Shown here: in pieces, positions 1,982 to 36,837 of the stretch
Position numbering within the stretch: the stretch's first letter is position 1
Layout: every line of letters begins with the position of its first letter
From: Thozetella sp. PMI_491
Lineage: Eukaryota; Ascomycota; Sordariomycetes; Chaetosphaeriales; Chaetosphaeriaceae
Direction of reading: 5' to 3'
Assembly (NCBI GenBank): GCA_021432635.1
Contig: MU270034.1
Coordinates: 368,321 to 432,320, forward strand
Length of the DNA: 64,000 bases
The notes under the pieces: model-generated
The model's input: the letters and a program-made list of their open reading frames with translations, nothing else
Told to the model about the DNA's origin: nothing
The model's database searches: none
Made by a program: the position numbers and the translations under genes

Positions 1982-2166
1982 TCGTCACCGCAAGTAGGAA
2001 TGTCAGCAAGATGGCGTGCAGGCGTGTGTGGGACCAAGGTTTGATATCCTGGGAGGGTAACTTGAGTTGATATAGATCACAATAGTTTGCAAAAACAAAT
2101 CCATACAAACAGGGCGGTGAGCGTTAGGTCATTCCTATGCGCTAGAAAAGCCACAAGACTCTCTCC

Positions 2167-5426: not shown

Positions 5427-5911
5427 TAGGAGTGCTGAGGCGGGCATAAAGACATAGAGGTCGCGACTCCACGACTGGTAATGATGGTGGCCGGGACTCT
5501 CCGCTCTGAATAATTCGTTCTTCAAATACGTAGAAAATGCCACATTTCCTCTCTTTTAATAGAGTGGTGCGCATACTATTCGAGCTAGGCAAGCATGTGC
5601 ACAGGGCAGCCGCTGTTAGCGCACCAATTGTATTACCTTGATGGATGCTGGAACAATATCGCGGCATTTTCACGCGTTAACGGACGAGACTAGGGGTTAG
5701 AGGGCTAAATGCTGTTGTGTTTCCGCAATGTCGATCTAGAACTCATAATCTTTCTATTCAAGGCTTTATAGACAGATGAAGTCAAAGTATATACATGAAA
5801 GTCTTGCCGCTCTGCCACATTTCTCTACCCATGGCCCAAAGAAAGAAACATGTGTCCGTTGGCCTTGGGAAGTGGATGCAAAGACTTGGATCCGATAGAG
5901 GACTCAAGTAC
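5427..5911. other. Intergenic between convergent genes
   Basis: A 485-bp gap between the 3' ends of the PEBP and BYS1-type genes. No supportable coding frame; the frame antisense to the BYS1 gene begins here and is treated as a shadow. Confidence 0.55.
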
Positions 5912-6499
5912 TTAAGCGCGGAATATAGTTTCGCGCTTAGTGACGAACTGAGCCTGCGGTTGGCAGAGATCTACCCAGAAATCGCCAGTGTTGAGAGGGC
6001 AGAACCGAGTCTTGACATCGTCAGGGTTCTGGTACGCGTCAAGGCAGATCTGGCCCGCAGGGCACCGGATCTTTAGGCACGTCCCTTGGCCCTCGCCGGC
6101 GCCGGTGGGGCTGATCTTGACGTTATCGTGGTAGAAAGGGGTGCCCACGAGGCCACTGGCGCTACCGTCTAGGTTGCTGAGGTCCCAGTATAAGCCATTA
6201 GTGAAGGCGTACTCGAACTGCAATATTCCGCTGTTGAAATTGACGTCTCCCTTGGATATCTTGACACTGGTGCCTTGGCCGTTCTGGATCCATCCCAAGT
6301 AGATGATGTTACCCGGGTTTACGACGAAAGGAGCTGCGCCAGCGTTGCCTTGGCAGATCCCGTTGGGTCCCGAGTTGCACCCGCCTCCGTTAGACTGGTA
6401 AATGTAGATGGTGCTAGAGCACCAGTTGTTGATGTTGAGTGTAGCGCTAGCGGTCGAGACCAGCCCAAGGACAACGGAAGCAACAAGGCGAGAGAGCAT
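5912..6499 (-). CDS. Secreted BYS1-domain (thaumatin-like) protein
   Basis: Single exon, 195 residues. The N-terminus MLSRLVASVVLGLVSTASA is a clear signal peptide. The mature part begins with LNINNWCSSTIYIYQSNGGG and continues with YLGWIQNGQGTSVKIS, QFEYAFTNGLYWDLSNLDG and YHDNVKISPTGAGEGQGTC. This is the beta-sandwich pattern of the Blastomyces yeast-phase-specific BYS1 / thaumatin-like group. Several cysteines near the C-terminus (CLKIRCPAGQIC) probably form disulphides. Such proteins are secreted or wall-associated and some have been proposed as effectors; function is otherwise unknown. The tail after the last Cys pair (QFVTKRETIFRA) contains a Lys-Arg that could be a processing site. It is convergent with the PEBP gene. 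Confidence 0.85.
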   Translation of the reverse strand: MLSRLVASVVLGLVSTASATLNINNWCSSTIYIYQSNGGGCNSGPNGICQGNAGAAPFVVNPGNIIYLGWIQNGQGTSVKISKGDVNFNSGILQFEYAFTNGLYWDLSNLDGSASGLVGTPFYHDNVKISPTGAGEGQGTCLKIRCPAGQICLDAYQNPDDVKTRFCPLNTGDFWVDLCQPQAQFVTKRETIFRA

Positions 6500-9344
6500 G
6501 ATGTCGGCGGAACCGAACTTGGGTGAAGGCCTACAAAGAAGGAAGGGATGTCTCTCTGTATAACCAAAGCAGATACGAAACCCCAGGCTGTGCCGAATGA
6601 AACGGCTGGGAGAAGGGGCCTTTTAAACAGGCACGGTAGTGCGATATGCACGCTCTGAGCGTGCAAAGGCATGATGCGAGGCACGATGCGAGCTTGTCAC
6701 CAAACATGTCAGCTCAGTCCTTGCCTACGTTCGCCAACCGATACCTTAAACAAGGCTGCGCCAGCGCCGTGCTCAGGGCTATCGTGTAATATTGGCCGGA
6801 GAGGCAAATGAACAAGGAGTTAGGATGGGAACGGACCGCTATGACGGCGGTATTGGTTTTTAGCGAGATTATATCTATACTAGAGAGCCGCCTAGTACAG
6901 TAGTAGACTGATTAGTGCTCAACTAGGAACTGAAACAAGCCACCAGCAGCAGTATATTTCACCTATTCGGTCGACGTTCACGCGAAAGACTCGCCGGATA
7001 CTACTAGCATTTCTCATGGTGGCACCCTGTCATTAGTTGACTCGGCTTTCAGGCGCGCGGGGGTGCGTAGCGATCAATACGTCGGCGCCACAGCCCCGAA
7101 TCCCCAAACTCTCTCTTCTGTGCAGCCTGCCCAGAGAGCAATGGTGGGAGTATCAGTAAGCTACATTCGAAGTCGCGCGCGGCGCGCCGTCAGTGTAGCA
7201 TCTGACATTGCTTCTAGGTGATGAAGAATGGCCGATATTAAAAATGGGCTCCGAAATCCCAAGTAGGGCTGACTGGTACCATTTTCTGTGCAGATTCAAT
7301 AGTTCCCAGGGTTCGTCAGCTGCCCGGGTCCCATACTCGCGTGAAGGATTTGCCTCCCGAACACTAATTAGGTCCTGATTGCCCGGCGAACCGCCGGGGG
7401 ATGGCACCCCATGCAGGGGCTTGTCTCTCTGCCTCTCGCTATCGCCTAGCAACAATTCCTTTGCAGGCAGGAAACAGCTTCATTTGCAAAACTTGCTGCA
7501 CCAGCATCTCCTCCTAGCGGGTGCCAGACCACACGCTATGGACGACGATGTGCAGTACAATTCCCTCTACGCGGCGAACGAATGAACCTGCGCGCGTGCA
7601 CCTCTCCTCATCCTCTCTGGCTGTCGGTGCCGTTTCGCCAGAATGGTATCGCCGTTGGTGAGAATGTTGTATGTAGTTCGAACAATGCCATTGACGGGCC
7701 GGCCAATTGGCGACGGAGCCGCGCTCACGTGGACCGAGCATGAGTTGGTGTGTTCCAGCAGGCGTCTCCTAAATGAAGCATCATGTGCGGCGAAGCGCAT
7801 TGATCCTAGCTTCAGATCTTAACGACTATACACGCGCCATCAACAAACATTGAACAAAAGGCAGTGTTCTATTCTACCGGGATCGCTATCCGAGGTACGA
7901 AGCCAGATGTCTTGGCCAAATTGCTAAGGCATGGAAGCAGTAGCACAAGCTTTACGCTGTTGCTTTGGCGTGGGGACCAATGCGAGGTAGATCGATATTA
8001 GCTAGATAGGGAACCCGCCTAGTGAAGGTGGCTTGTGCGAGAAATCCTACATTACTACCTACTGCCTGGCAGGTATTTCCCGACGCAGATTGCATCGCTG
8101 GGAGAGGTGATTGAGTCGTCACCTCGGTGGGGCCAACAAGGCGGAAAATGAGAGGGATCTAATATTGACGGGTGGTGACGCGGACGCAGCGGATATAAAA
8201 GTTCCAAAAATGCACAGCAATACGATATAGCCGTACTATCGCGAAGGTGCGACACCTTGTCGCTGGAACACACTGTCGACCACTTCCCGTAGCAGGGACG
8301 CTGCGAAAAGCGCTAGAGGTACCATTGCGAATCCTACCACTCCCCTAACGGCTATACAAGCCTCAGGAGCAACCTGCCTTTAAGACGCACTTTTAGATGG
8401 GCAGGGTGCAGTATTCGAGGTTGACATTCAGCTTTCGATATAAAGATTAGTTAGGAGAAAGGTGTTTAAGAGATTGCAGTCTTGGCAACTAGAGCTATGG
8501 AACTACGGCCAAGCTTTTTAGGCAACGCCAATCCCAGGGAACCCGGACACCAAGGGTTTCACAGCCGCGCTCCAGAAATCACTCGCCGTCTAGGATTTCC
8601 TGTTGTATTTTCCTCTGTTGCTTGCCGGCGCATCTGCACATCGACACCTAAGATACCAAGCATCGGCCGTGGTAACAACTCCGCCAACATCTATATTGGT
8701 ACGACAGTTGACGTTCTCTAAGAAGAATCCACCGCGTTAATCGCTAGTTAAAAGTCATTTGCGAGGTAAGAAAGATCTCCGAATTTTTCCTTATATCTCA
8801 GATACATCCGCGACATAGGTACTTGCCCTGTGCTTGTTTAGACATCTTCCTACTGCCCACGCCCTTGTGTGGATTGTATTGACACATTCTGTATGCCAAA
8901 AGAAGCTCGGTGTATTTACTAGCATTGTATAAAGTGTACCTCGTTGTCCAAAGTTTGACTTCACCGTGTTCCAATGTGACTTTTCGGACTATCTTTGCTC
9001 TTGGCTGTAACGGCATGGATGAGCGTTTTGCCTATCTCTATTGAGTCTATATGATGCATTTTAGCCGAATTCTCTATTTGAGGTATTGTGCCTGACCACT
9101 GCTGGAACTAATAGTCGCATAGAAAATTGAATGGATCGATGAGACAGGATTTGGGCGAGAGGTACAGAGACAGCATCCAAAGCAGCGACGTTTTACACTC
9201 GGCCCAGTACGATCCTAGGTAGACGCACAGCACGGTTGAATAAAACTGTTCTCCAACAAGACCAAATCATCCCCAAATAACCCAATAAATGCCCTTGTCA
9301 CGTAAAACCGACTAAATGCAACTTGCGAGAATCTCCACCCAAGT
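6500..9344. other. Long intergenic region, no gene seen
   Basis: About 2.8 kb in which I see no signal peptide followed by plausible exons, no recognisable domain and no RNA gene. Several 60-100-codon frames exist (for example 7153-7455, 8055-8273, 8798-9016) but look like chance or decayed sequence. It separates the housekeeping-like genes from the RiPP locus and may mark the cluster's left edge. Confidence 0.5.
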
Positions 9345-11826
9345 TCAGAAGATCTCTTTGTTCATGAACATAGCGTTGAACCATTGCTCATCTTGGAGCG
9401 GGTGGCGCTTGAGAGCATCACCACGATTCCTCTTGGGGAATACCCCAGTTGCTTGAGTTACAACTCCAGTATGCTGCTGTCTCTGTTCAGCCTCCCGCTT
9501 CTTGTTGGACCGCGCTGAGAGATCGCCGGCTACACACGAAGCACCCTTAAAAGCCGCGTCTGCGGCTGCCGCCCATATAGCAGTGGCATTGGTGATCATA
9601 GGAGCCGTCCAGTAAAGCCGACAGTCGGCAGGTACGTTCACATACTGCGCCGGGAGGCCATCTTCGATGTGGTCCCTTGGGATCGCGTCACGTACGTTTA
9701 GTGACGCGGCAATGGACCGGTTGAGCGGCAGAGATGAATAGCGAGCAAACTCTGACACATGCTCATCGCGCGTAGCATAACGCATAAAGCGCGTGATGTA
9801 ACCGTGCACTGATATAAAAATTGTCAGGAATCCGGGTTTTTGTAAGCAATGCGAGGCAGCAACAGAGAGAGAAAAAGGGTTGGTTACCATCGCTCCAGCG
9901 TAGACTCTGTGAGCCTTTAATGCCTCCTACCCCTTGTATCAGGCCCTCGACTGGGCGCCCTCCCATGGCAATTGATCTAACGCCTCCCTGTGAGCGAAGC
10001 ATTTCCGAAAATATGGAACAGGTCGAGGCGCATGCGCCGTCGTAAAGGAGGATGATATTTTCCGCGTCGAACGGCTGGAGGACACTAGAGAGTGAGCCGT
10101 AGCCGGTGATCTCGATGCCAACACCAAACGTGGAATTGCTCGTAGTGAGGCTATCGTGTAGATTCCAGCGCACGAGGCTTGTATAGTTGGTGTTCTTGTA
10201 TAAATGCGGGCGGAACTTTTCCTCAAAACTCAGGAATGGCTGTCCAGTCATGTTGTAGTCGTACTGGTAGTTATACCATGTCTCCCAGGACTTGATCAAT
10301 GAGGAGTTCCTGCTGGTCCACGGGTCAAGGGCAGCAACGAGGTCGCTATCTACCTGGGCCGCTGCGAGAAACCCCGCGCTTTCTTTCCATCGTGACAAAC
10401 CGTCTTCGACAATAGTCGGAAAGAGCTGGCGGAAGAAGTCGTATCCTAGCATAAGATAACCGCCGCCGTTCGCCTGCAAATCCACTATAAGCTTGGTCTT
10501 GCCTGCATCGACGGCTTCTGCGATGCATTCCTGGACCACGGCCTGGAACTCGGCGAATGAGTCGGCAAACATATCCAGCAAGGCGATAACAACTATATTG
10601 TCGTATCCTTCGCCCTGTAGATAGTAACATGACGCAACAGTATCGTTTGTAATTGCCACTGGGGAAGGGTATCCTGATATTGCCGGAGCTGTGCTTCTCG
10701 CCGCCACCCTCTTGGTGACTGTCGCGTTGGACGAGGCCGAACCAGCAGCCATCATCCCATTCGGGTTGCAAAACTTGGCATAGTATGACGGCCCGTCAAT
10801 GACCCCAGTCAGATTGGCAGTGATCACGGCTTTGTTCTGCACCGTGATTATTGTGCCGTTTGCAAGTGTAAATGTTGTGATGGGGCCCGGGTAGATGAAG
10901 CGTGTGCGCCCGCCCTTAGCAAAGAATCCCCCGGCGCCATGCGTAGCGTGATAGCTAAGGGAGAAGAACATTGAGTTGTAGATGGCATCCTTGTCTTGGT
11001 TTCCAACAGCCAGGGACCCAAAGTCATCCACATACTCAGCTGCGCTCACCCCATTTATCAGGGCAACAGCGCTAGCTGTGTCAGGGTTGGCAACGACGTC
11101 CTCTCCACTCTGGTCAGTGACTGTTTATGTGCCAGGACTACCGCAAAGAGAACCATGACCTACCATAGAGTTTAATAACCGGAAGGCTGACTCCATCTTC
11201 ACTAATCGAAACCAGTGATTGCCGTCGTTCGAAGCCAAAGACCCTTGTCAACGCATCTGGGTAGAAAAGAAGATGGCCGTCGTGACCCTTTCCGGTAATG
11301 TTTAGATATAGGTCAAGCTGAAACTCGTACTCGTTCGCGTACTCGTCGGCCACCAGTCCTGCCCTAATTCTGGCAAGGTTGCCGAATATGTCGTACGCTT
11401 AGGCCTTCCGTGTTGGCAACATCACAATAATAGGACGCTCGGTTGGACGCACCTGGAAATGGGTAATCGGCCGGGGGGTCGGCTTTGTAGGTCGTGTCGC
11501 TCTGCCATTCCAGGTAAGGGACCATGGTGTCAACCAACTCGATGGCGGCATCCTTGCCCAGCGGGACGGAGTTGAGACATTCATACGCCAGCCGAGCAGC
11601 GACAGTCGGAGTTGCTGCATAGAGTCAGTATGGATATGCTATGTGCTGAGACACTGGTCACCGGCATACCAAGAGGCGAGGCTGATACTTGAGCGGCCCA
11701 GAGGGTAGAGACTTGAGCACAAGGCTCAACTGTCACGGCGGACTGGATGTGTCTAGTTGGGTCCGCGCTGGCGAAGCGGGCGGCTGCCAAAAGCGCGGCC
11801 AAGAGGCCAGAAGAGCACGTCGGCAT
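9345..11826 (-). CDS. Secreted S41-family peptidase (UstP-like)
   Basis: Five exons on the minus strand (11826-11670, 11614-11453, 11397-11164, 11120-9888, 9808-9345) keep phase throughout and give 749 residues. The N-terminus MPTCSSGLLAALLAAARFASA is a signal peptide. The CLNSVPLGKDAAIELVD and VPYLEWQSDTTYKADPPADY segments, then GKGHDGHLLFYP, are typical of fungal S41 (tail-specific/CPAF-like) peptidases. The C-terminal protease core carries KLIVDLQANGGGYLMLGYDF and the region ILLYDGACASTCSIFSEMLR, where the nucleophile Ser is expected. Known family members include UstP and the PhomP proteins of dikaritin clusters. It lies directly downstream of, and in the same direction as, the repeat precursor at 12925, 1.1 kb away. 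An in-frame Met at 11859 is an alternative start. Inferred role: trimming or maturation of the secreted precursor. Confidence 0.85.
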
Positions 11827-12924
11827 CTTCCAGCTGCTTTTCCCGAACAATGTTTGCATATAACTCAGCGTGACAGGAACTGTGCCTTTGGCATGACCAG
11901 ATCGTATTGGCAAACTATGTTTGTGGGTCTAGCATCGACATTTAAGATCTGCAAACAAAAAAAGAGAAGAAAAAGAGGCTTCTAGTGCCAACCTCCGTGC
12001 GGCGCCACCAGCGGCGAGCATGAGGAAGAAAGGCGGTGTTGTAACCCTTTGGCTACTCAACTCCGAAGTGCCAGGGAGAGGGAAATAGGAGTAGTATTCG
12101 CGCCAAACACTAGTATTATCCGACTACCTTGATGCATACCTTGGCAACGGCCCCCCCTGTTTAGTTGGGTACATAGGATTGTGGCCGCCTAGGTACTGTA
12201 CTTGGTACTTGCTACATGCTCCAGACCAGGGGAGCCGCCGACCTTAATTTAGCGCCTTCCTTCGGCGCAAGCCGCTATAGGTGCTGCATGCTACCGCTTT
12301 TGGTATAAAATAAAACTCCACGTCGTAGCTGTACCAATTACATTGTAGCATTTTCATGAGATCACCTATTCTCGCAGCAAGTTTCGATCATATCGCGCCG
12401 GTTAGCGAGCGGCCCGATTCCCGATCGAACCCCCTCCCACCAATGTATTACGATGAACTAGCTTAGCCTTGGGAAGTCCGGGCTCGGGCATGTTGCTCCG
12501 AAGTAGAAGAGACTCTCACCTCCTTGCTAGATCTTTTGCCCTGTTTTGGGTAGGATATGGGCCTTTGCCAAGCCCTTAACAAATTTTGACCCAGACACGG
12601 TTGCTCGTATTCCGCCATCATTTTATGCCCGCATAGCCTCGCTTGATACTTCAATTAGGCTCATCTAGCTGGAAAGAACGAGATTTGGAGCTGATTTGGA
12701 GAACTTGAACTCGCTTCCCTACTGACTGTTCCCCTATGAAGATTGCCAGTAGACGGAAGATTCCCCGTCCCGCAACACATTCTGAGATTGACGGCTTCAA
12801 GATGCCAACAAACAGTGACGGAACACCGTACATTTGAAACAAGACTCCAAGCCTGACGGGCATCTATTGGAACTCCTCCTCTATGTACCTCCTACAAGAC
12901 TAGACATGATTTGTGTATAGTTGC
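11827..12924. other. Intergenic between S41 gene and precursor
   Basis: Holds the S41 promoter (right-hand part is upstream of 11826 on the minus strand) and the 3' region of the precursor gene. No supportable coding frame. A run of purine-rich sequence near 11957-11980 may be 5' leader. Confidence 0.5.
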
Positions 12925-13498
12925 TCAGGCAGTACGCTTCTCAGCCCACCCAGCGACAGTGCCCGCAGCGTTGTACGCAACTACCTCGGAAGCGTCCGTG
13001 TTAGGCTCGCGCTTCTCAGCCCACCCAGCGACAGTGCCTGCAGCGTTGTACGCAACTACCTCGGAGGCGTCAGTGTTAGGCTCACGCTTCTCAGCCCACC
13101 CAGCGACAGTGCCCGCGGCGTTATAGGCAACTACCTCTGAGGCATCCGTGTTGGGGGCGCGCTTCTCCGCCCATCCAGCAACAGTGCCAGCTGCGTTGTA
13201 CGCAACCACCTCGGAAGCATCCGTGTTGGGGGCACGTTTCTCCGCCCACCCAGCGACAGTGCCAGCAGCATTGTACGCAACTACCTCCGAGGCGTCCGTG
13301 TTGGGGGCGCGCTTCTCAGCCCATCCAGCAACAGTGCCTGCGGCGTTGTAGGCAACCACCTCGGAAGCATCCGTGTTAGGTGAGCGCTTTGTGCTGTAGA
13401 CTTGTTAGTTTTGCCCAGTTAATTACGATAAATGCCATGACATACGGTGCAGCCAAAGCCACAGCGGCCACAACGACAACAGATTCGAAGAATCTCAT
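12925..13498 (-). CDS. Repeat-containing RiPP precursor (UstA-like, six Kex2-bounded units)
   Basis: Two exons, 13498-13446 and 13393-12925, separated by a 52-nt intron (donor GTATGT, branch ACTAACA, acceptor CTACAG). Predicted protein 173 residues: signal peptide MRFFESVVVVAAVALAA, a short PTKR, six tandem 25-residue units, then Thr-Ala and stop. Each unit starts with a variable residue (Ser, Ala, Ala, Ala, Glu, Glu) plus PNTDASEVVA, has a single Tyr at position 12 followed by NAAGTVAG and a single Trp at position 21, and ends AEKR. Apart from position 1 the six are identical in protein, while their DNA differs at silent sites. Lys-Arg ends are Kex2 sites, as in the UstA, PhomA and AprA precursors. 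Neighbours are an S41 peptidase and three UstYa proteins, the defining dikaritin gene set. The likely core includes the Tyr-to-Trp stretch. Alternative: a Kex2-processed secreted peptide or pheromone not modified by UstYa. Confidence 0.88.
12934..13383 (-). repeat. Six tandem 75-bp units inside the precursor gene
   Basis: Six head-to-tail copies of a 75-bp unit, in frame with the precursor, each encoding one Kex2-bounded 25-residue peptide. Copies differ from one another by a few bases, nearly all silent. Not a CRISPR array: no spacers, and it is coding. Confidence 0.95.
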
Positions 13499-13627
13499 GA
13501 TGGTGTAATCGAACACGGAAGAAGTGATGGGCGATGTTAAGGTAGGAGGAAGGAGGATATCGGCGTGAAATTCCAAAGAGTCTGTAGTCGCTTTCATAAT
13601 GGAGCCACATCTTTGGGCATCATACCA

Positions 13628-13633
13628 TTTATA
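13628..13633 (-). promoter_or_regulatory. Possible TATA box of the precursor gene
   Basis: On the minus strand the sequence CGTATAAATGG lies about 130 nt upstream of the precursor start codon at 13498. This is a reasonable distance for a TATA element plus 5' leader. It rests on the motif and position only. Confidence 0.4.
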
Positions 13634-15103
13634 CGTCCTAGCTCTCGCATAGCGATGTAATCGAGCCGCCCTGTAGCCTTCTCACTCGTCCCTGTACAGC
13701 TTTCTCGCCTAATACTGGAGTTTCCCGAGGGGTGGGTAGCTTCTTTGCTACAAAGTTACCTTCCCGAAACGGCGCTACGTAGCATGGCCACATAGACTTG
13801 CCGTACATCAATGTGAGCGTAGTAGGTGTGGGCAACAGGAGGGCGACTCTATTCCTAGATGGGAGGGGCCTTTCGGCGCCGCGGCACCCGGTCGCATGTG
13901 ATCCTTGCGAGGATTCAGCGGTACGAGGAGCCGTACGAGGACCCTGTTAGATGCTACCGCATCTCTCTATCTTTGGTTGCTTGTGCAGGAAAGTAGATGG
14001 AACGGTGGAGATGGCGGGTGATACATACATACACTAGGATCACATCTCGGGCAAACTTTTCGTGGAGGATCAGACGCCGCGTTGTCCTAGATTGGCTGCA
14101 TAGCATCCATGGTTCGGCGCAGAAGGTATTGCGAGCGACATTGCAGGGAGCACGAGACCCAGAATACCTGGTAGTACGATTCCCTGAAGGTACAACGGAT
14201 CTAGTTCCCAGTCCTTCTATGCTTGTGGAGCTGTCGCACCAAGACGGAGTCCGCATAGAGTAAGGTACGGCGCATAGAAGAACGTGTTCGGGCATACCTA
14301 CGGAGTGCCCGGGGCTCTGTAATGGACGGGTGGGTCAGGTGGGGCGCTATTCTATGTCCTTAGAAAGGGAGCAGCGGTTGGGTATGAGGTAGCGAACGCA
14401 TAAGTGTTCCATGGACCTTGGCGAAGATTGTGTCCAGATCGAGTTAAGCAGCGCGAGGGAATCGATGGACATTGCGAGTAGTCTATACCCTACCCCTGCC
14501 CCCTGCCCCTAGCTATTGCTGAAGCCAGGTGTAGTTCGGTAAGTTAGTGCTTAGCTCCGAAATTCCCGAACAGTGGTTAAATTGTTCTGGCTTGGCAAAG
14601 CAAATTCCACTGCAAGTTCCGCTGCAAATCCGCAGTTGTTGAGCATTGATGGATGGGTATGTATCTTAACGGTGGGATAGTTACCGGCCAATCGCAAGAG
14701 ATGGCGCCAGGAGCTCCAACCGACCGGGATTCTAAGTTCTACGGGTCCCACGAGTAGTAGCCAGTGGTAGTAGCTAAGGTAGTAGTAGAGTTGCAGTACT
14801 AGGGAGGCTGGTAAGGACCTGGTGTACGTGTACTTGACAGCACCTGCCATAAGCGGAGCCGCCAACACTGTGCCACAATCCACCCTTTTATCGGTTCTTG
14901 GCGAAGATGGCTCTAAGCTCCATACTTCTCGCTTAATCGTTACGATAGCACGACGCCTTGCCGTGTGAAGCCATAAAACATACCCCTTCACGGAAAAGCA
15001 CGTGAAGGGGCTATTTATCATTGCGCGAAAATCTTTGACTGCCGCTGGCCTCCGAGACATAGTCACCATGAGGGATTGTTGGTCTCGTTCCAATTCAGAC
15101 ACC
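13634..15103. other. Intergenic, promoters of precursor and first UstYa gene
   Basis: Shared upstream region of the divergently transcribed precursor (minus) and UstYa gene 1 (plus). An 88-codon frame at 13997-14263 has no recognisable domain, so I do not call it. Confidence 0.5.
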
Positions 15104-16346
15104 ATGGATAAGCAGTCGTTCTTGTCGCGCCCCAACGCGCCTCTGAGCATGGAGTGGACCAAATATGAGAGCGCAAGGTCCTCAACAGATGAGGACGCGA
15201 ACGATGGCTTGCTGACAGGAAAGGCCATAGCCCGGCGTGGTTCGAACAAGGCCGGGTGGCTGTGGGCCGCCTCACTGACTTTAAACGTCATACTCGGCGC
15301 TGGTTTGGTGTTCCTAGCGGTTCGCAAGCCAAACGACCCTTCACTTCAGATCTATTGTAGGTCCAAGATCCCGCACCTCTTCAAATCATCACTGATTTGT
15401 GCGTGCGCGTGTGTGGTTGGGCTGACGTAAAGTCAGCACCTGTGAATCACCTAGTCGAGTACCATGTTACCAACATCTCGGCCAGTTTCATGACCAAGAC
15501 TCCATACATGGGCTTTCCAGATGATAAAATAGATCAAATGTGGGAGGATCTCTACCAGTGTGAGTATGCGAGCTGGCACTTCGTACATGGCTTTATTCCA
15601 CATAGGCTCACGCTCTTGTCTTGCCCAAGTTGGCGATAGCTACATATCTCCCGAGCAGGCTAAGCTACTACCGTACCCTACGATCAACGAGCGGGGTACC
15701 GACAGATACCTTTTGCAGCTAGAGGTCTTCCATCAGCTCCATTGCCTCAACGACATTAGAAAGGCTTTTTATCCCGAGAGATGGCCGGACAAGTGGCCAT
15801 ACCACGAGGATGGGACTATCAACAGGAAGCACAACCAATTCCGTCACTGGGGTAGGCGTCGCTAGTATTCACGCATAGCCGAGTCCACAGGCCGCTAACA
15901 GAGCTTCAGAGCACTGCATTGACATTCTGCGGAGCACCCTCATGTGTAACGCAGATGTCTCGCCTATCTCATGGCGCCTAAATCTTCCTATAGGCGCCGT
16001 CCTCGCCCCGAATCTTGAAACGACACATACCTGTCGTAACTTCTCCAAAATCGTAGAATGGGCACGTGCGAACGAGGCAGTAGATCTACGGCAAGTGGTA
16101 ACTGACGAGGAAAGACAAGATATTATTGATAACCCACCATTCGACCAGTCAGCGTGGGAGGACCTTTCAGAGTTTTGGCCCGCATTCCCCGGAAATACAT
16201 ATTTCAAGCAGTGGCAGCATGGTTGGAACGAGACTAACGAGGGGCGTGCTTTCTGGCAGCAGTGGAGAATAGACGAAGCTGCTGAGAAAACGCAGCTGCC
16301 TGAGTTCGTCGAACCGCATACACACCAGCCGCCGCATGGCAACTAG
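15104..16346 (+). CDS. UstYa-family (DUF3328) oxidase 1
   Basis: Four exons (15104-15356, 15437-15559, 15630-15851, 15910-16346) give 344 residues. An N-terminal cytoplasmic segment is followed by one transmembrane helix (about 50-73, WLWAASLTLNVILGAGLVFL) and a lumenal domain starting IYSPVNHLVEY. It carries both hallmark motifs of UstYa proteins: HQLHC (160-164) and HWEHC (198-202) followed by IDILRSTLMCNADVS. Known family members (UstYa/Yb, PhomYa, AprY) are membrane-anchored oxidases that build the ether or C-N macrocycle of dikaritin peptides. The C-terminal half (about 220-344, ending PHTHQPPHGN) is longer than in the other two copies. An upstream in-frame Met at 15068 is an alternative start. 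It is convergent with UstYa 2, with only 274 bp between stops. Confidence 0.9.
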
Positions 16347-16620
16347 CTATAGAATACCCTCTAAATAATGACTGGATTTCTCAAAAAATGTAGTTTAAAT
16401 ATGTCAATAAGATTGTACATCAAGTATACTGTGCTTAGTATTCTAGCAAAGCGGTGCCATTTTCTTCAAGGCAGAGAGTATCGAGTCTACACCAAGCTCA
16501 TTAAACTGTCCCGTAATGCTTTGCAGATATGTCGCTCATATGATGTGTGGCTAACGGAAAGAACGAGTGTAATATTTATAAAAACTTTGTAGTCCGCGAT
16601 AATCTATGCATCATTGGGAA

Positions 16621-17692
16621 CTAATATACATCAAATGGGATCCGTTTCTGGCCCGGGGGCGGTCTCAGGGCCAAGAACTGCTCTTCTGTATAAGGCTTTT
16701 CTGGATTCCAATGCAAAATATTCTCATAATTTTGGCATTTCCGCTTGACGTTGAAGTCCACCACGGGTGGCTTGGAACCTTCGACCCAGAAGGCCGTGTA
16801 GACGTCGGTGCTGTACTTGCACCGGAATGTCTGAACCAGGGTGTGCAGGCAATGCATAGCGTGGATTTCAAGCCTTCCTGTCTTGTTGCCGTAGTAATGG
16901 TCGGCATAAACCCACATCCGCATGTTGTTCAGGCAGTGGATATCATGTTGTCCTTGGTTCACGGCGAGGTATTGGTCCTCACCATACCCTAGATAGAGAT
17001 CAGAACCAAATAGACATTATAGATAGCTAGGTAAGCCATCATTACGTACCCCAGTCTAGAGGCGCCTTAATCACGACCTCTGGGTCCTTCCCCATCTGCC
17101 GGACCTCTTCTTCACTGATGACGAATAGACGATCGCCCTTATGAAGCTTGCGCCATGCCTCGTCGACCTCAGGCGACGGCGGCTCGCGGTAGATAGAGGA
17201 ACCCCCTTCGTTGTTTTTGTTTATCAGCGCCGTCTTTATTTGCTCCTCGTGCATATGTATTGTAGTGCGACTGAGGAGAGGTGCTATAGGAGCTATTAGC
17301 AACGCTCACGTCCCAAGTTCACCGGAAGGGACGTTCACTTACAATACGAATTTGTCGCGAGGATCAACTCATGGTCCGACGCGGTTCTTGTGCTAAGCCA
17401 GGCGTAGCCAAAAAGAGCAAAGGCCACGACCAGTAGAATAGCGTCTACAACTGCTAGCCATTGCATGCATCGACGCCAGAAAGGCGAGAATGCCCACGAC
17501 TGGGAACAGTTCATGAGTTCAACATCCTTCTCAACTTGAGTCTAAATAGTGACGATATGAGCCAAGATTCACGCTGGGGCGATTTACGAGGAGGGCTGTT
17601 ACCGAGTCGGAGCTGCTGGACCGGCCATCCTGGGATGGCGAACGTTCGGCATCCTCTGCTAGAGGAAAATATTTTCCCTTGGAGTCCATCAT
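16621..17692 (-). CDS. UstYa-family (DUF3328) oxidase 2
   Basis: Four exons on the minus strand (17692-17588, 17541-17343, 17283-17050, 16988-16621), all phase-consistent, give 301 residues. The Ser/Asp-rich N-terminus is followed by a transmembrane helix at about 64-84 (LAVVDAILLVVAFALFGYAW). The lumenal domain contains HDIHC (194-198) and HAMHC (222-226), each preceded or followed by the usual CLNNMR and KYSTDVYTAFWVEG blocks. The first intron is only 46 nt and has no strong branch site, so the N-terminal junction is the least certain part. Its closest relative in the window is UstYa 3: equal length, same motif spacing, and matching intron positions for the last two introns. Probable role: oxidative cyclisation of the precursor peptide, possibly as a heteromeric pair with another UstYa, as UstYa/UstYb are thought to act. 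Confidence 0.87.
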
Positions 17693-18815
17693 TCTCTGGT
17701 ACTGCCGAGTTGATCCGTGGGCATGCGCAAAGGAGCAAAACAGATAGGACGTGACACCTGCCCAGAGCCTCTGCTTAGAAGGGGAGGGGTCGACTATCCT
17801 TTAGTGATACCGCCAGTTCTCTCGCATTTCCGTCCCGAGGCTAAAACTATTGGGGCGTGGCAATATTAACAGCGAGGATAGATGCGTGGGACTTTGCCTT
17901 GCTGGTTACAGGGCAAGGGGGTGTTTTCCTAGTGCCTGCTAGGCTCTGGCTACACAGAAGCGCATAGGTAGGTAGTTTTCCCGCCAAATAGAATCCTTGT
18001 CGGCGTCTCGCTAGATAGGGGAAATAGCAAAGATTCAAGGTCTCGTGTCCCAGCCCGCCCACGAAAGAGCAGCCGGACTAGGCGATTGGGGGATTGTGGA
18101 GTTCGCATGGGTGGAGATCTCGGCCTCGAGTCACGAACACATCCCCCTTCTGTTTCTCAGCCATGGGGATGAGTCGCCCTATTGCTATCAAAAGGAGTTG
18201 CCAAGAGGGATCTAACACGATGATGCGACCCTGACTGATGGATCCTCCCACCGTCGCTGGGACAGTGGACAGGGTTCGGTTACCAGGGCCCGCAATGCCC
18301 CTGGCTATGGAAGTACAGATACAAAGCTTCGCTTAGTAGCAGCGATGCAACCCAACTAGAATGGCAAGGAATAGGGCGAGTCATTTAGGGTATTTACTAA
18401 GTGTTCATACGATGCGCCTCCTGAACCCGACTGCTCTAGACCGCTATACTATGGTGCATTAGGAACCGGAGCGAATCCTTCCCGTGCGGCGCAAAAGCGC
18501 CGCTTCTCCGCTGCTTCTCCACCGCTACTAGTCTCCCAGGTATGCACTCTACTATAATTGGCCTCCAATATGGTTGCAAAGCACGCACTATACGAATGAG
18601 AAGGAACATGTAGCATGGGTTCTAGGTAGTCACAACGTCCTACGGCGACCCCGGGGGACACAGTCAGCCGGGCGTCTACTCTCTGCTCCCCGACCTTCAT
18701 CAATTTTGCCACAAGGGCCTGCCTCAGTCTCTCTCTACTCGCGCACTTCTCCCTTATCCATTCCAGCGGTGATTCCTGTTTCTGCTAATCCAGTCAGGTC
18801 CAGAGGGCCTCAACC
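17693..18815. other. Divergent promoter region between UstYa 2 and UstYa 3
   Basis: 1.1 kb separating two divergent UstYa genes, so it should hold both promoters. No supportable gene. Two minus/plus frames (17847-18062, 18449-18819) lack domain or composition support. A shared bidirectional promoter is plausible, but I cannot identify a regulator site with confidence. Confidence 0.5.
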
Positions 18816-19844
18816 ATGAAGCCCATACAGCGTTTCGCAGAAAGAGAGGGTGGGAAGGAGAGGTCATCGGTAAGGCTACAAGCCTCTCGGGGAAATCATT
18901 GTGAAGCACTTGTCTGTGATCCTTTGCTAAAAATCATGCTGCAGGACTTTGCAGAAATTTCCTTCAACAGCAATCGTGTGGATAGGCGCATCTACATGAT
19001 TACACTAGCTCAAGTGTTGATCATCCCGCTCTCTTTGCTCGCGATATGGGCTGCCTGCGGCCAGATCTTCCAAAAGCCCACGGACCATGAGTTAGTAGTA
19101 GCTACTAACATGTGGTGTACGTAACCCATTCGGGAAAATTCGGGAGAAACGGTGAACGACTGACCCCAGAAACAGCTCCTTTCCTAGACCGCCGAGAGAT
19201 GCATTTCAAAGAGACGTGGCTCAAGAGCTCCTTCGTCAACCACCACAACACACCTCCGTCGATCCTACGCCAGGAGCCATCGAAGGACGTAGATGCAGCG
19301 TGGGAGTATATGCACCAGAATGGTCGGATTTTCTTGGTAACAGAGGAAGAGGTTCGTCGCCTGGGGAAAGACCCCGAGATGACGGTAACCGCACCCAAGG
19401 AGTGGCGTAAGCAGCATAGTCTCTCCCCCCCCCAGAGACGCCCGGCTAACTTGAATACCTTGACCTTTAGAAAATGGGGAGGAAAAGTACTTTGCGATGA
19501 CGCAGTCCCAGCACGACCTACACTGTTTAAATATGGTACGCAAGGCCATGTTCAAAGACTACTACTTCAACGGGACCATGGATTGGGGGACAGAGCAGCA
19601 TTTCCTGCACTGCCTGCACTCATTGCTCCAGTCCCTCCAGTGCAAGTATAGTACCGACGTGTATCTTGCTTCGTGGGTCGAGGGCCAGGACACCGCTGTG
19701 GTTGATTTTAATGTTAGTCGTAAATGTCTTGACTATGACGTCGACATGAACCAGTGGATACCGCCTACGCAGAGAACGGAGGCGGATTTCTTTGGGCTAC
19801 GGGCACCGCCGGATGCAAAATTCATGCCACCAACGGTGTTTTAG
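18816..19844 (+). CDS. UstYa-family (DUF3328) oxidase 3
   Basis: Three exons (18816-19116, 19176-19406, 19471-19844) give 301 residues. The N-terminal 60 residues are poorly conserved and may hide another exon boundary. The transmembrane helix is at about 61-84 (LAQVLIIPLSLLAIWAACGQ). The lumenal part begins after ATNMW and carries HDLHC (191-195) and HFLHC (220-224), then KYSTDVYLASWVEG. Introns 1 and 2 sit at the same codons as introns 2 and 3 of UstYa 2, which shows recent common ancestry with it. The family catalyses side-chain macrocyclisation in dikaritin pathways. Three UstYa genes next to one precursor suggest more than one oxidative step. Start choice is moderately secure; the core domain is secure. 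Confidence 0.87.
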
Positions 19845-20607: not shown

Positions 20608-22020
20608 ATGTCTCCAGACCCGAAAAATGCAGAGTCATCCCCAGGACCAACGGCACAATTGTCGTCCTGGGTACACTCCACCAAATTGGAAGACGTCCCA
20701 GAGCGAATAGTGGGCGCTCATCTTCCCTGGACCGAGAAAGCTGTCAGAGCCATTTGTAATCTCGAGCCAGGAGGCGAGACAACCATATTTGGGTGGTGCG
20801 ACAGGAAGATTGGTCCACTCTCCGCTGCACTTCTCAATAGTACCTTCATCCAGGGCTTTGAGCTCGACGACTGGCATAGCGAGGCACCTCTACATTCCAA
20901 CAGCATCCTCCTCCCAGCCTTGCTCGCTGCAGCTCAGCACGTGAACGCGCAAGACAAGCCACAGCCAATATCTGGATCTGACATTCTGCTCGCCACCATC
21001 GTCGGATATGAGGTGGGCCCGCGAGTTGGTCTCGCCCTCTACGGGTCCCATGTGCTGACTACCGGTTGGCACTCTGGCGCCGTGTTTGGGCCCGCGGCAT
21101 CGGCTGCCGCGGTTGGGAGGCTTTTGAGCCTCACATCCGCGCAGATTGAGGACGCTTTAGGGATTGCGTGTACTCAATCCTGTGGCTTGATGTCTGCGCA
21201 GTTCGGGAGCGATGTCAAGCGCATGCAACACGGCTTTGCTGCGCGAAACGGCCTGCTCGCTGCATTCCTAGCCCGTGGAGGGTTTACCGGGATCAAGGGC
21301 GTCTTCGAGCAAGAATATGGAGGCTTTCTTCAACAGTTTAGCTCGGGTAACGGTAAAAGCCCACAGTATCTGCCAAAAGAGCTAAACCGAGATCTCGGTA
21401 TCAAGTGGCAGGTCGACGGTGTGCGGGTCAAGCCATATGCGTCCATGGCTGGCACGCACCCGACCGTGGATTGCGTACGTGGACTGCAAGAACGGTTCCC
21501 AGAGCAGATGAGAAACAGGATCCACGAGATCAAGAAAATCAACATCAAACTGGGCGAGGCAGCATTCCATCATGGTGGCTGGAAGGCAACGCGGCCACTG
21601 ACTAGCACAGGCGCGCAAATGAGCAATTCGTACGTTGCCGCGACGCAGATTATCCACAGGCACGTGCTTCCCGCGCAATTCCGGCACGACATGCTGGAAA
21701 ACGAGGAAGTATGGAGGTTGGTGGATCTAACAGACTGCGAGATGACCGACGACTTCGGTTCTTTCAAAGGACGGCAGACCGTTACAATCGAGTTTGCCGA
21801 TGGAACTGTGCTAGAACAGTCGGTTGTTGCTGCACGAGGAGTTCAACCGCCTCTTTCCAACGACGAAATAGTGGACAAGTGGAGACAACTCATGAAAGGT
21901 GTTATTGACGATGAGAGGGTGGCGAAGATCGAATCGCTAGTACTGAGCTTGGAGGAGTGCAGTGATATTTTGCCGCTCATAGAGTTGATGGCAGGCCGGA
22001 CGGAGAATCCAATTGAATAG
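20608..22020 (+). CDS. MmgE/PrpD family protein (cis-aconitate decarboxylase-like)
   Basis: Single exon, 470 residues. The sequence resembles fungal cis-aconitate decarboxylase and 2-methylcitrate dehydratase relatives. The signature FELDDWHSEAPLHSNSILLP, the Gly-rich WHSGAVFGPAASAAAVGRLL, the segment GIACTQSCGLMSAQFGSDVK and QHGFAARNGLLAA are all present, and the second domain runs to the C-terminus. This family decarboxylates or dehydrates short tricarboxylic acids in the mitochondrion or cytosol, producing for example itaconate. Oddity: between LEDVPER and IVGAHLPW the helix that normally follows (an ERAKxLxLDGIxC-type stretch, roughly 15-17 residues) is missing with no intron to account for it, which may impair folding. 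It lies beyond the UstYa genes and is convergent with the Zn2Cys6 regulator; a role in the peptide pathway is not established. Confidence 0.85.
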   Translation: MSPDPKNAESSPGPTAQLSSWVHSTKLEDVPERIVGAHLPWTEKAVRAICNLEPGGETTIFGWCDRKIGPLSAALLNSTFIQGFELDDWHSEAPLHSNSILLPALLAAAQHVNAQDKPQPISGSDILLATIVGYEVGPRVGLALYGSHVLTTGWHSGAVFGPAASAAAVGRLLSLTSAQIEDALGIACTQSCGLMSAQFGSDVKRMQHGFAARNGLLAAFLARGGFTGIKGVFEQEYGGFLQQFSSGNGKSPQYLPKELNRDLGIKWQVDGVRVKPYASMAGTHPTVDCVRGLQERFPEQMRNRIHEIKKINIKLGEAAFHHGGWKATRPLTSTGAQMSNSYVAATQIIHRHVLPAQFRHDMLENEEVWRLVDLTDCEMTDDFGSFKGRQTVTIEFADGTVLEQSVVAARGVQPPLSNDEIVDKWRQLMKGVIDDERVAKIESLVLSLEECSDILPLIELMAGRTENPIE

Positions 22021-22162
22021 ATGGAAAAAGAAAAAAAGAACCGAAAAAAGGGGGGAGGGGGGGCTGCAAGACACAACCTTATCGTGTAGCCAATATTCAC
22101 CTATGTTGCCGAGATCTCGTTTCTCGGAGCACCGCTATGCCGTTCGAAGGGCTAAAAGAGGC

Positions 22163-24579
22163 TCAATTCCAGTTCCAGTCCAGATCCTCGAGTCCTTCCC
22201 AGTTCCAATCGGGAACTTCCGTGAGATCGAGCAACGTGGCTGGAAGCGTCGTTGGGTGCATAGGTGGTTCGTCATTGAGAGAATCCGATTTTTCTGGCGC
22301 CGTTGCTGATGCTGTTGTGTGCGCAGTCCGAACAAACCCCGGCGGTGCTTCACTTTCCTGCTCGATATATGGATTCGACTTGCCTCCAAACTCAGCTCGC
22401 CACCACCAGAGACAGTCGAAAACGATACTCATGGACTGTCGTCTGTGAGCGTAGAGCCTAGAGCTGATTTTCAGAAGGCTTACTAGTCGACCTCGGAGCA
22501 AAAGACGAAGGCCATCTACCGAGCCGTCCTTGAACTTGAAAACTCTTGTACTGGACCATAGCTGGGTCAAGATGATGGCAGTCCTGGAGCCGAGGTCGTT
22601 GTTCTGAATCGAATGCTTTTTGGACAAGCGAATAGCCTCAAAGAACATGTCTTCTCCCAGCCCAGTGCTAACACGCGCACGTAGACAGCTACGCTGGACT
22701 CGGAGGATACATACGGCTGCACACGCCAATGCGCGCGCCTGGAGAGCGTTGCAGTAATTCCCAAAGTCCTGATACCTGTCGAGCCTGGAAGCCGTCCCTA
22801 TCAGCTCGCAGGAAATATAGTAAGCCTGCAGGACCCCTGAGATGCAAGCGCCATCAGAGGGAGTGAAAAGGTGGAAAGCCCGAATCATAAGGCGTACGCT
22901 GCTGAGAGTATAACTGCCTAGAATCAATTAGCGGCTTGCTGGTTCCAGGCGAGGGATATTCATGCTTTTGGTCACTGATGGCAGTACCAGGTGACCGACA
23001 TTCTGGAATGCGGGCTTACTTAGATCAGACTCTTCTGGTGCATAGACTTGCAGAGCCTGTGCGTCAAAGTAGTCGATAAGAGAATTCAGCAGCTCACTGT
23101 TGCGACCCGAATCGAGATCGATTGCTCGCATAATTGTAGACACCGCATCTATGTGGACCCGGTGCAGGTGATTCCGGTAGGAGATTTTCGGAGGCAGACC
23201 GTCAAGTAACGAAACGCTGCGATCACAACCGGCGGGAGTCATCGTGGAGGGAAAGGGAAACCCGTCGCAGAGACTCGTGCTATTTGACACGTGAGTTCAG
23301 GGATCCAAGCCATAAGTGAACAGCGTGAAAGGAGCAAACCTCTGAAATACAGTCATGCAACTGACCCATAGTCGAGCGCGGAACTGCTTTTCTCCTTCGG
23401 ACTGTCTTGATGGCACGCGAGAAAAGTCTTGTTTCTTGGCTGCGTAAGGCAGGCCCTTCTGGATAGCGAGCTGCATTGCTGCGCCTACGAGCGCATGACT
23501 CTGATCTTCGAAGGTGCTGTTTGTCGGCAAGGGCCAGAGGCACAAAATTACAACGGCCTGTATGGCCGAGATCGCATCGTCTGGGTCGAAGACGGATTGC
23601 CGAGCCAGCTGTTTCAGCGGCTTTATGAGCGATTCGACGATGGTAGGGTCTTCGTACTTGCGCGACCCTACGTAGACAATGGTCCAGAACAGAAAAACGG
23701 AGTACTCGTATACTTCATTGGGAGTCCTTTCGCAGTCAATGATGTCTAGAACATCAGGGGCATAGCGATCCCGGAACCTTGTTTGTCTGGTCAAGAGTCG
23801 GCCTTCTTTGGCCAAGAATAGAAGAGTCTCACATGGAAAAGCACCCGTTGACCTTGGGGGCACTCAACTCGAGAGCCCCTATTTTGCGGGACATCGTTTG
23901 CGAGTCGTATGATATTGTCCGTGCCGGAGAGCTCTGGCCTATGTCGGCTGGATGAATGAAGGCAGCACCGAAACCGGGTTGTGCATCCTGCTTGGGGCTC
24001 GGCCAATTTTCCGTGGCCATGGTACCGCTTTGGACCAAAAGACGGGGGCTACTCGATGCGGAAAGTTCCTGGCTTACGCTCAGCAGAGTCCTACTGGGTG
24101 TCGAAGTATTTTCGTTCTGGTGGATGTCGGTCTGCTCCGCTAGCATCCGGGGGGCGGTTAAAGGTGGCGACTCATACCGCGATCGCAGCCTATTCAGCTC
24201 ACGCTCTAGCTGCGCTTTCCTTTGGGCAGTTAGCAAATAAAGGGGTTATAGTAGAATTCGGAGCACCAACGTCTGCCGAGTCCGTCGTTCCGATGTATCG
24301 GATATGATGCAGTCTCGCTGCATCTTCCGGCACCGGGAACATGGGCCGTAATTGTCTTCGTGGGCATCACATCGTAGCTGTCAATTGGTGCCATCATCAG
24401 ACTTGGAGCGTTCAAGGGCAAAGCAAGGAGCTTCCGGGTATTCTATTTCCCACCTTAAGCTGTCGGCAAGCGTTGCAGGCCTTCACGCGACCGTGTACAA
24501 CGAGCCTACGAGCAGAGCGTGACGCGTGGTCGCGCCGTGGACCAGTCCTAAGCTCTGGTGACCCGGTACTTAGCTCCAT
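22163..24579 (-). CDS. Zn2Cys6 transcription factor
   Basis: Six phase-consistent exons on the minus strand (24579-24454, 24377-24271, 24219-23833, 23777-23340, 23279-22996, 22917-22163) give about 698 residues. The N-terminal binuclear zinc cluster is split by intron 1: ACNACRQLK at 34-42, then LRCDAHEDNYGPC and SRCRKMQRDC. This gives the Cys spacing 2-6-9-2-6. A short coiled-coil-like linker follows (AQLERELNRLRSR). The central fungal_trans domain runs from the CERTPNEVYEYSVFLFWTIV block to RAFHLF, and the C-terminus is acidic with repeated Trp (WNWEGLEDLDWNWN), a plausible activation region. The intron near 22918-22995 is the least certain. It is a nuclear DNA-binding regulator. It is the only intact regulator near the RiPP locus, 4.7 kb from the last UstYa gene, so it is a candidate pathway regulator. 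Confidence 0.85.
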
Positions 24580-29972: not shown

Positions 29973-30184
29973 GGCATGGCCAATACACGCAGAGCACTTG
30001 GAATGAAGCCCAAATTGTTCAAAGACAAGTATGCTACATTATAGAGCCGGAATATATCCATGTGCATAAACATAGGCGGAAATAATTTCTCAAATCTAGC
30101 ACTAATAAAACTAGCTGCAATAAATAGTGTGTTACAAGAGATGCAATTATAGTAGCTACCTTAGGAAATAATATTGTAAGCTTA

Positions 30185-36639: not shown

Positions 36640-36837
36640 CTAAGTAAAACAGGTAAACTCTAGTAGAATCTACGCTATTGCTATAGCCCGGCCAGGGCCT
36701 CCTTCGTCGGCAGTACGCTGGATGTGAGGGCGGGTCTCCTGAACGACCCTAATCTTTATCTTGGGTGAAGCTTCCCTTTATCGATATGGGGGTGAGTATG
36801 GATAACTACGTTCTGACCAAGTATAAGTAAAGTATGT

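What the first reader, a model, noticed from the sequence alone, without database searches (positions are those of the whole stretch)
9345..19844. Apparently new dikaritin-type RiPP gene cluster
Seen: a signal-peptide precursor with six Kex2-bounded repeats, an S41 secreted peptidase, and three UstYa/DUF3328 proteins in about 10.5 kb. Known: this combination defines ustiloxin, phomopsin, asperipin-2a and victorin pathways. The repeated unit here (single Tyr, NAAGTVAG, single Trp, AEKR) does not match the core peptides I know for those products, so the compound is probably undescribed.
Basis: partly seen in the sequence, partly recalled or inferred. Interest (0 to 1): 0.95.

Follow-up and report, generated by a model that had tools for sequence, protein, structure and literature searches.

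The report
Kex2-repeat peptide cluster with UstYa oxidases
In the fungus Thozetella, one gene encodes a protein of six near-identical 25-residue repeats each ending in a Kex2-type cutting site, beside one S41-type protease gene and three UstYa-family genes; the repeats are predicted to be cut out and likely cross-linked into a small secreted peptide of unknown structure, and close relatives of the protease and of two of the UstYa genes also occur in Trichoderma.

Summary
On the minus strand at 12925-13498 lies a two-exon gene for 173 residues: a predicted signal peptide, then six 25-residue units [S/A/E]PNTDASEVVAYNAAGTVAGWAEKR. Beside it lie a CPAF/S41-type protease (9345-11859, -) and three UstYa/DUF3328 proteins (15104-16346 +, 16621-17692 -, 18816-19844 +), each with paired HxxHC motifs. 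Outside codon 1, all 16 variable DNA sites among the units are synonymous, so the peptide is under selection. Class: a dikaritin-type RiPP cluster, a new member of a known kind. The repeat was not found in a 5.8-billion-protein search or in held papers, but the enzymes are not private to this fungus: UstYa2 and UstYa3 have orthologues in Coniochaeta and Trichoderma, and the S41 groups with Trichoderma longibrachiatum and kin; in T. gracile S41, UstYa2, UstYa3 and one more UstYa bear locus tags 6994-7000. Two points set it apart from ustiloxin and phomopsin: no tyrosinase was found nearer than 36.5 kb, and each unit begins X-Pro with only X free, a Ste13-like signature that a survey reports absent from precursors of toxic cyclic tetrapeptides and of epichloecyclins. 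The alpha-pheromone gene lies elsewhere. The Tyr-to-Trp ring is a guess; product, ends and cross-links are untested.

The parts
12925..13498 (-). Precursor gene, two exons (13446-13498, 12925-13393), 173 aa, predicted signal peptide plus six Kex2-bounded repeats
   Evidence: Splice model and translation; only place of this repeat found in the 72.3 Mb genome
12934..13383 (-). Six 25-codon units [S/A/E]PNTDASEVVAYNAAGTVAGWAEKR
   Evidence: TRF; 16 of 16 variable sites outside codon 1 synonymous
9345..11859 (-). S41/CPAF-type protease, five exons, 754 aa from the long start (public model GQ53DRAFT_864062 starts at 11826, 743 aa)
   Evidence: Pfam, homologues, predicted fold like CPAF 3dor
15104..16346 (+). 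UstYa1, DUF3328/PF11807, 352 aa, HQLHC and HWEHC
   Evidence: orthologues not searched for
16621..17692 (-). UstYa2, PF11807, 301 aa, HDIHC and HAMHC; orthologues in Coniochaeta and Trichoderma
18816..19844 (+). UstYa3, PF11807, 301 aa, HDLHC and HFLHC; orthologues in Coniochaeta and T. gracile
   Evidence: predicted structure of the public model P0131, pLDDT 92.6
20608..22020 (+). MmgE/PrpD-family protein at the cluster edge; membership uncertain
   Evidence: PF03972 E 4.2e-59, PF19305 E 3.2e-33; next best in genome 32% identity
22163..24579 (-). Zn2Cys6 transcription factor, possible cluster regulator; membership uncertain
   Evidence: PF00172 E 5.2e-8, PF04082 E 1.1e-6; no convincing shared promoter motif

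Best explanation
This is a fungal gene cluster that encodes a six-repeat protein with Kex2-type sites, an S41/CPAF-type protease and three UstYa/DUF3328 proteins, and it is predicted to make a dikaritin-type peptide: the precursor would enter the secretory pathway, be cut after each KR by Kex2 and trimmed by Kex1 to 23-residue peptides, likely lose the N-terminal X-Pro to a Ste13-type dipeptidase, and likely be oxidised and cross-linked at its single Tyr by the UstYa enzymes. Shown: the genes, the repeats, the paired HxxHC motifs, the selection on the peptide, relatives of S41, UstYa2 and UstYa3 in other genera. Inferred from family knowledge: secretion, Kex2/Kex1 cutting, copper chemistry. 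Inferred and weaker: Ste13 trimming, the role of the S41 protease (cutting at the peptide ends), which residue Tyr is linked to, and whether the whole 21-23 residues or a shorter core is the final product (I put whole length at about 45%).
For: Precursor anatomy. Three PF11807 genes and an S41 gene within about 10.5 kb. Of 10 S41 (PF23658) places in the genome this is the only one with a UstYa match within 30 kb among the 149 scored (next nearest 31.8 kb on C66), and about 10 kb around each of the other 9 holds no repeat precursor by my detector. Among units, 16 of 16 variable sites outside codon 1 are synonymous; the alpha-pheromone gene of the same genome shows 8 of 8. All three UstYa carry HxxHC twice, the copper site of CctR (PMC12435403, abstract and passages). 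UstYa3 model (P0131): helix 2-25, and the two motifs on helices 129-144 and 156-175. DPPIV-type peptidases: 3 places in the genome.
Against: No transcript, protein or mass data. No homologous precursor was found, so co-conservation of precursor and enzymes is untested; orthologues of UstYa1 were not searched for. No tyrosinase found near (nearest 56396-57328). Coniochaeta's S41 in the tree falls in another clade, so the S41 is not shown to go with the two UstYa there. Shared promoter motifs: fewer shared 9-12-mers than random windows. DUF3328 proteins also hydroxylate, chlorinate and occur in non-RiPP pathways (PMC12048977 section 22), so ring formation does not follow from their presence. The Ste13 signature is often a repeated XA/XP; here it is a single X-Pro per unit, which could be chance. 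Strict unit conservation is not special to this gene.
Confidence: 0.7

Rival explanations
1. A variant inside the same class: the final product is a short core (for example the Tyr-to-Trp stretch) cut out of the 23-mer by the S41 protease, as ustiloxin's four-residue core comes from 13-14-residue Kex2 peptides; the rest of the unit is a recognition sequence.
For: UstA is thought to be cut into 13-14-mers before cyclisation, with core YAIG (PMC6514808 passages). An S41 protease is present. RiPP recognition sequences can be conserved too.
Against: Positions 2-25 are invariant among the six units while synonymous sites drift; in the L005 precursor of the same genome, by contrast, positions 1-4 of 11 vary. 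No cleavage site inside the unit can be named.
Confidence: 0.35
2. The repeat yields a linear secreted signalling peptide, pheromone-like, released by Kex2, Kex1 and Ste13; the UstYa and S41 genes act on something else.
For: X-Pro after each KR fits the Ste13 signature, which a survey ties to alpha-type pheromones and candidate peptide hormones (PMC6339444 passages). The unit is as strictly conserved as the alpha-pheromone.
Against: The alpha-pheromone gene (WCQIRGQSCW, four copies) is on another contig. A survey found 3 of 216 putative fungal pheromone genes with a DUF3328 gene among the 15 nearest genes (PMC7329392). All three UstYa genes end within 6.4 kb of the precursor.
Confidence: 0.12
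3. The cluster is a decayed or silent relic.
For: No expression data; the precursor may be absent from public annotation (its own copy did not come up, though the scoring filters could also explain that).
Against: Reading frames of precursor, S41 and the three UstYa are intact with GT-AG introns; units under purifying selection; conserved motifs intact.
Confidence: 0.05

Closest known systems
Ustiloxin B and phomopsin pathways (dikaritins)
   Same: Signal peptide plus KR-bounded repeats, several UstYa/DUF3328 proteins; S41 peptidases and zinc-finger regulators are among the conserved proteins of such clusters (PMC6514808 passages)
   Different: No tyrosinase, methyltransferase or P450 found in the stretches scanned; 25-residue unit with one Tyr and one Trp, no YAIG core; X-Pro start of each unit
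Asperipin-2a pathway
   Same: Repeat precursor plus UstYa-type oxidase without tyrosinase
   Different: Asperipin has one UstYa homologue and no S41 protease, core FYYTGY (PMC6514808 passages)
Unnamed cluster in Trichoderma gracile (TgHK011_006994 to _007000)
   Same: S41 63% identical in the same 100/100 clade, UstYa2 59%, a UstYa3 orthologue, close locus tags
   Different: Its precursor was not found; it has one more UstYa copy without intact HxxHC motifs (P0129)
Ascomycete alpha-pheromone precursors
   Same: Kex2 sites, X-Pro/X-Ala after KR, strict conservation of the unit
   Different: Not WC..GQ.CW; UstYa genes beside it; the pheromone gene is elsewhere
CctR (cyclochlorotine hydroxylase), AprY, ApnU
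   Same: DUF3328; CctR has a membrane helix and HxxHC(x)nHxxHC, all three reported copper-dependent (PMC12435403 passages)
   Different: Substrate and reaction of the three UstYa proteins here unknown

Membership tests
Dikaritin RiPP cluster | Precursor with signal peptide and Kex2-bounded repeats | tested here: met
   signal peptide by hydrophobicity only
Dikaritin RiPP cluster | UstYa/DUF3328 gene close to the precursor | tested here: met
   Three PF11807 genes ending within 6.4 kb
Dikaritin RiPP cluster | Paired HxxHC motif in the UstYa proteins | tested here: met
   3 of 3
Dikaritin RiPP cluster | S41 family peptidase (conserved in phomopsin-type clusters, not among the asperipin-2a genes) | tested here: met
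Dikaritin RiPP cluster | Tyrosinase homologue (PhomQ was used to name the family; not among the asperipin-2a genes) | tested here: not met
   No PF00264 in the stretches scanned between 1 and 38.2 kb; in the genome-wide list the nearest is 56396-57328 of the window
Dikaritin RiPP cluster | Zinc-finger regulator in the cluster | tested here: inconclusive
   Zn2Cys6 factor 2.3 kb past UstYa3, no convincing shared promoter motif
Dikaritin RiPP cluster | Cyclic, oxidatively cross-linked peptide product | not testable with these tools
   Needs mass spectrometry
Ascomycete alpha-pheromone | WC..GQ.CW-type peptide, no UstYa neighbours | tested here: not met
   Motif absent from the unit; a WCQIRGQSCW gene lies at C21:364918-365463
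Ste13-processed Kex2-repeat protein | X-Ala or X-Pro directly after the Kex2 site | tested here: met
   6 of 6 units begin X-Pro with X = S, A or E; a single dipeptide, and its removal is untested

The most novel reading that the evidence does not exclude
A pheromone-style precursor wired to copper oxidases: identical 21-residue secreted peptides are released by Kex2, Kex1 and an X-Pro dipeptidase and stapled by UstYa enzymes, giving a long cross-linked peptide signal rather than a short toxin, made by an enzyme set shared with Coniochaeta and Trichoderma and possibly moved between lineages; a second precursor of the same genome (mostly [D/E]A starts, WGT ends, L025) may follow the same design.
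Probability: 0.22. Interest if true: 0.72.

Novelty: new member of a known kind. Interest (0 to 1): 0.45.

Why it matters
A 2022 review counts only five reported dikaritins (PMC10512285, passages) against 1758 repeat precursors with DUF3328 neighbours (PMC7329392), so each clean cluster with a visible precursor helps. This one has a small enzyme set without a nearby tyrosinase. A UstYa2 orthologue lies in T. reesei, and the S41 clade holds Trichoderma sp. CBMAI-0711, which I recall to be a T. reesei strain; if the rest of the cluster is there too, the chemistry could be studied in a genetically easy fungus. If the X-Pro start is a Ste13 site, it joins two things held apart so far: pheromone-type trimming and oxidative cross-linking.

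Tried and rejected
Rejected: alpha-pheromone identity (a WCQIRGQSCW gene found elsewhere). Rejected as proof of uniqueness: strict unit conservation. Controls in the same genome, as variable sites lying in codons with one amino acid: 11 of 11 (L018, 4 of its 5 units used), 8 of 8 (alpha-pheromone, 4 units), 10 of 14 (L025, 6 of 7 units used), 4 of 11 (L005, 12 units used, the gene is cut by the locus edge), against 16 of 19 here. Led nowhere: homologues of the precursor (27 candidates, none at E<=10); promoter motifs (one 9-mer and no 10-12-mer shared by three or more of seven promoters, fewer than random windows; of 80 gapped CGG patterns the best, CGG-N6-CGG, is in 5 of 7 promoters, with no control run); solved relatives of UstYa by sequence (two weak hits to TRIM16 proteins, E 0.12-0.15; none) or fold (none at E<=0.001); NCBIfam (no hits in 5 proteins); papers on DUF3328 in T. 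longibrachiatum (none), Thozetella with RiPP (none), a Trichoderma RiPP paper of which I read parts 1-3 of 6 (PMC7099791; the cluster it details there is not this one). One search, for the T. reesei gene name, was rejected for its wording and not repeated. A survey of all UstYa neighbourhoods of the genome could not be done; only the loci of the 30 best of 149 matches, about 1.5 kb each side, were examined, and 3 of 30 held a repeat precursor; frames of low-complexity or out-of-frame repeats in L005, L025 and L038 were set aside by eye. The S41 tree uses 31 of 120 listed homologues, the UstYa tree 23 of 71 plus the three window proteins; both are rooted for drawing only, and the second warns of long branches, UstYa1 above all. 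One search printed nonsense for two UstYa proteins and one S41 attempt because of coordinates off by one; one search corrects the UstYa coordinates.
Full report
What was checked. The window is G000:C20:368321-432320 of a 72.3 Mb fungal genome. Its S41 protein is 100% identical over 99% of the query to GQ53DRAFT_864062 of Thozetella sp. PMI_491, listed on a contig of 1,084,023 bases, the length of C20, so the source is taken to be that fungus.

The precursor. On the minus strand, ATG at 13498, a 52-nt intron 13394-13445 and a stop ending at 12925 give 173 residues: MRFFESVVVVAAVALAAPTKR, six units of 25 residues, TA. The units read [S/A/E]PNTDASEVVAYNAAGTVAGWAEKR. TRF finds the array at 12935-13389 with period 75. 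The search of the genome found the repeat nowhere else. A search of 5.8 billion proteins gave 27 candidates sharing words and none at E<=10; not even the window's own copy was listed, so the gene may be missing from public annotation, or the scoring filters removed it.

Selection. Comparing the six units codon by codon, 19 sites vary; 3 lie in codon 1 and change S, A or E; the other 16 are all synonymous third positions. If every single-base change were equally likely, about 25% would be synonymous and all 16 being so would have a chance near 3e-10; this treats columns as independent events, which gene conversion can break. As a control, the alpha-pheromone units of the same genome show 8 of 8, the L018 precursor 11 of 11, L025 10 of 14, L005 4 of 11 (units used are given under Tried and rejected). 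So strict conservation points to a functional peptide but is not special to this gene.

The X-Pro start. All six units begin X-Pro right after KR, and only X varies. Le Marquer et al. state that XA or XP after the Kex2 site is the Ste13 signature, often repeated, generally dedicated to alpha-type pheromones in Ascomycota, and absent from the precursors of toxic cyclic tetrapeptides (which I take to be ustiloxins) and of epichloecyclins (PMC6339444, passages only). Here it is one dipeptide per unit. The genome has 3 DPPIV_N places. Of the seven units of the L025 precursor, also beside a UstYa gene, six start [D/E]A and one RA. Removal of X-Pro here is inferred, not shown.

The enzymes. The S41 protein has the CPAF-related PDZ domain (PF23658, E 3.4e-35) and a sub-threshold S41 match; its predicted structure (mean pLDDT 86.1) matches mature CPAF at E 4.3e-10, TM-score 0.41 by query and 0.55 by target. 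In the alignment of 46 sequences H148, C542, S544 and C546 are invariant; that H and S are catalytic is recalled from CPAF. The three UstYa proteins match PF11807, each has a hydrophobic stretch long enough for a membrane helix and two HxxHC motifs. Of 71 homologues of UstYa2, 66 have two such motifs. In CctR this motif binds two coppers per monomer and its mutation abolishes activity; the same paper says AprY and ApnU are also copper- and oxygen-dependent (PMC12435403, abstract and passages). No solved relative of UstYa was found by sequence or fold.

Neighbours. Six-frame Pfam scans covered 1-9302, 11700-15102, 22000-26802 and 28300-38202 on both strands; 9.3-11.7, 15.1-22 and 26.8-28.3 kb were covered only by the gene models and open frames. 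They found no tyrosinase, methyltransferase, P450 or transporter at E<=0.01. The genome-wide tyrosinase list puts the nearest at 56396-57328, 36.5 kb beyond UstYa3. An MmgE/PrpD protein (20608-22020, +) and a Zn2Cys6 factor (22163-24579, -) follow UstYa3. No convincing promoter motif ties them in.

Relatives. The best foreign S41 hits, P0002 and P0004-P0007, are Trichoderma longibrachiatum, gracile, citrinoviride, ghanense and novae-zelandiae, 62-63% identity (P0003, 63%, has no name); Trichoderma sp. CBMAI-0711 has 61% (287 hits, 120 listed). I recall these as section Longibrachiatum. In a tree of 31 of the 120 the window's protein and six Trichoderma rows of that group form a 100/100 clade, next to another Thozetella protein and one from Xylariales sp. 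PMI_506, while S41 proteins of T. virens, T. atroviride, T. gamsii and T. evansii fall elsewhere. UstYa2 hits: T. gracile TgHK011_006997 59% over 100%, Coniochaeta hoffmannii 80% over 68%, Coniochaeta sp. 2T2.1 66% over 82%, T. citrinoviride, T. longibrachiatum and T. reesei TRIREDRAFT_105220 at 55-56% (71 hits). The tree places UstYa2 with these (93/91, below the tool's strong mark) and UstYa3 with a second Coniochaeta protein (100/99) and T. gracile _006999 (99/97). S41 and UstYa2 share contig length in T. citrinoviride (97,722 bases); in T. longibrachiatum the S41 shares it with a further UstYa2-like hit (P0128) that I did not place in the tree; the two Coniochaeta sp. 2T2.1 UstYa proteins share one of 3.96 Mb. 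Coniochaetales and Hypocreales are; Thozetella's order, Chaetosphaeriales, is recalled. The pattern fits transfer between lineages or old paralogy with losses; I did not test which. Against a simple story: Coniochaeta's S41 in the tree lies in another clade, UstYa1 was not searched, and no relative of the precursor was found.

Sister precursors. Among the loci of the 30 best UstYa matches of 149, 3 hold repeat precursors: L018 SEAQSPDILYNNPAGWGKR, L025 EANNVDVVLKAENWGTKR, L005 AGIDYIKEGKR. Counting the window's, 3 of 4 have a Trp followed by only one or two residues before KR, and L018 shares YN..AGW with AYNAAGTVAGW. The number is too small for a test; a survey of DUF3328-linked precursors gives a Trp content rate of 20.5% (PMC7329392).

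Mechanism. Most likely: secretion, Kex2 and Kex1 cutting to 23-mers, X-Pro removal, oxidative linking at the only Tyr by UstYa enzymes in a secretory organelle, S41 trimming at some step. The first steps follow what is written of Kex2-repeat precursors and dikaritins (PMC9233826 and PMC9769878, passages). The linked partner of Tyr, the job of each UstYa and the final ends are open.

Novelty. The class is known and crowded: 7878 repeat precursors, 1758 beside DUF3328 genes, 838 types (PMC7329392, parts 1-3 of 4 of its results), five dikaritins reported as of a 2022 review (PMC10512285, passages). This is a new member with an undescribed repeat, not a new kind. That the repeat is not in print rests (five fragments, two of them from L018 and L025; no paper), in a library without most subscription journals and with no look at supplements.

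Noticed in passing
L018 (G000:C7:261883 region), 146-529 +: Another repeat precursor beside a UstYa gene: SEAQSPDILYNNPAGWGKR, five copies (the last cut at its end), sharing YN..AGW with the window's unit.
   Followed up: partly
L025 (G000:C14:834680 region), 2572-3069 +: Repeat precursor ANNVDVVLKAENWGTKR with a D, E or R before it, seven copies (the last cut), X-Ala start and no Tyr, beside a UstYa gene.
   Followed up: partly
L005 (G000:C2:1598207 region), 1-504 -: Repeat precursor AGIDYIKEGKR / EEIEYIKEGKR with variable first four positions, beside a UstYa gene; cut by the locus edge.
   Followed up: partly
G000 whole genome: 149 scored PF11807 matches merging to about 120 gene-like places, against a total of 9399 counts in 1461 fungal strains in PMC7329392 (about 6 per strain): a large UstYa repertoire.
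   Followed up: no
G000:C21:350068-365463: The alpha-pheromone gene (WCQIRGQSCW, four copies) lies about 14 kb from the best DPPIV_N match of the genome.
   Followed up: no
window 56396-57328 +: Tyrosinase gene 36.5 kb past UstYa3.
   Followed up: no
window 28000-40000 and 50000-52000: GC falls to 39-47% with short tandem arrays (29543-29666, 29791-29919); perhaps repeat-rich or mobile-element DNA.
   Followed up: no
P0129, P0132 (T. gracile _007000, T. reesei M419DRAFT_64107): A further Trichoderma UstYa paralogue, in T. gracile next to the others by tag, lacks the paired HxxHC motif.
   Followed up: no
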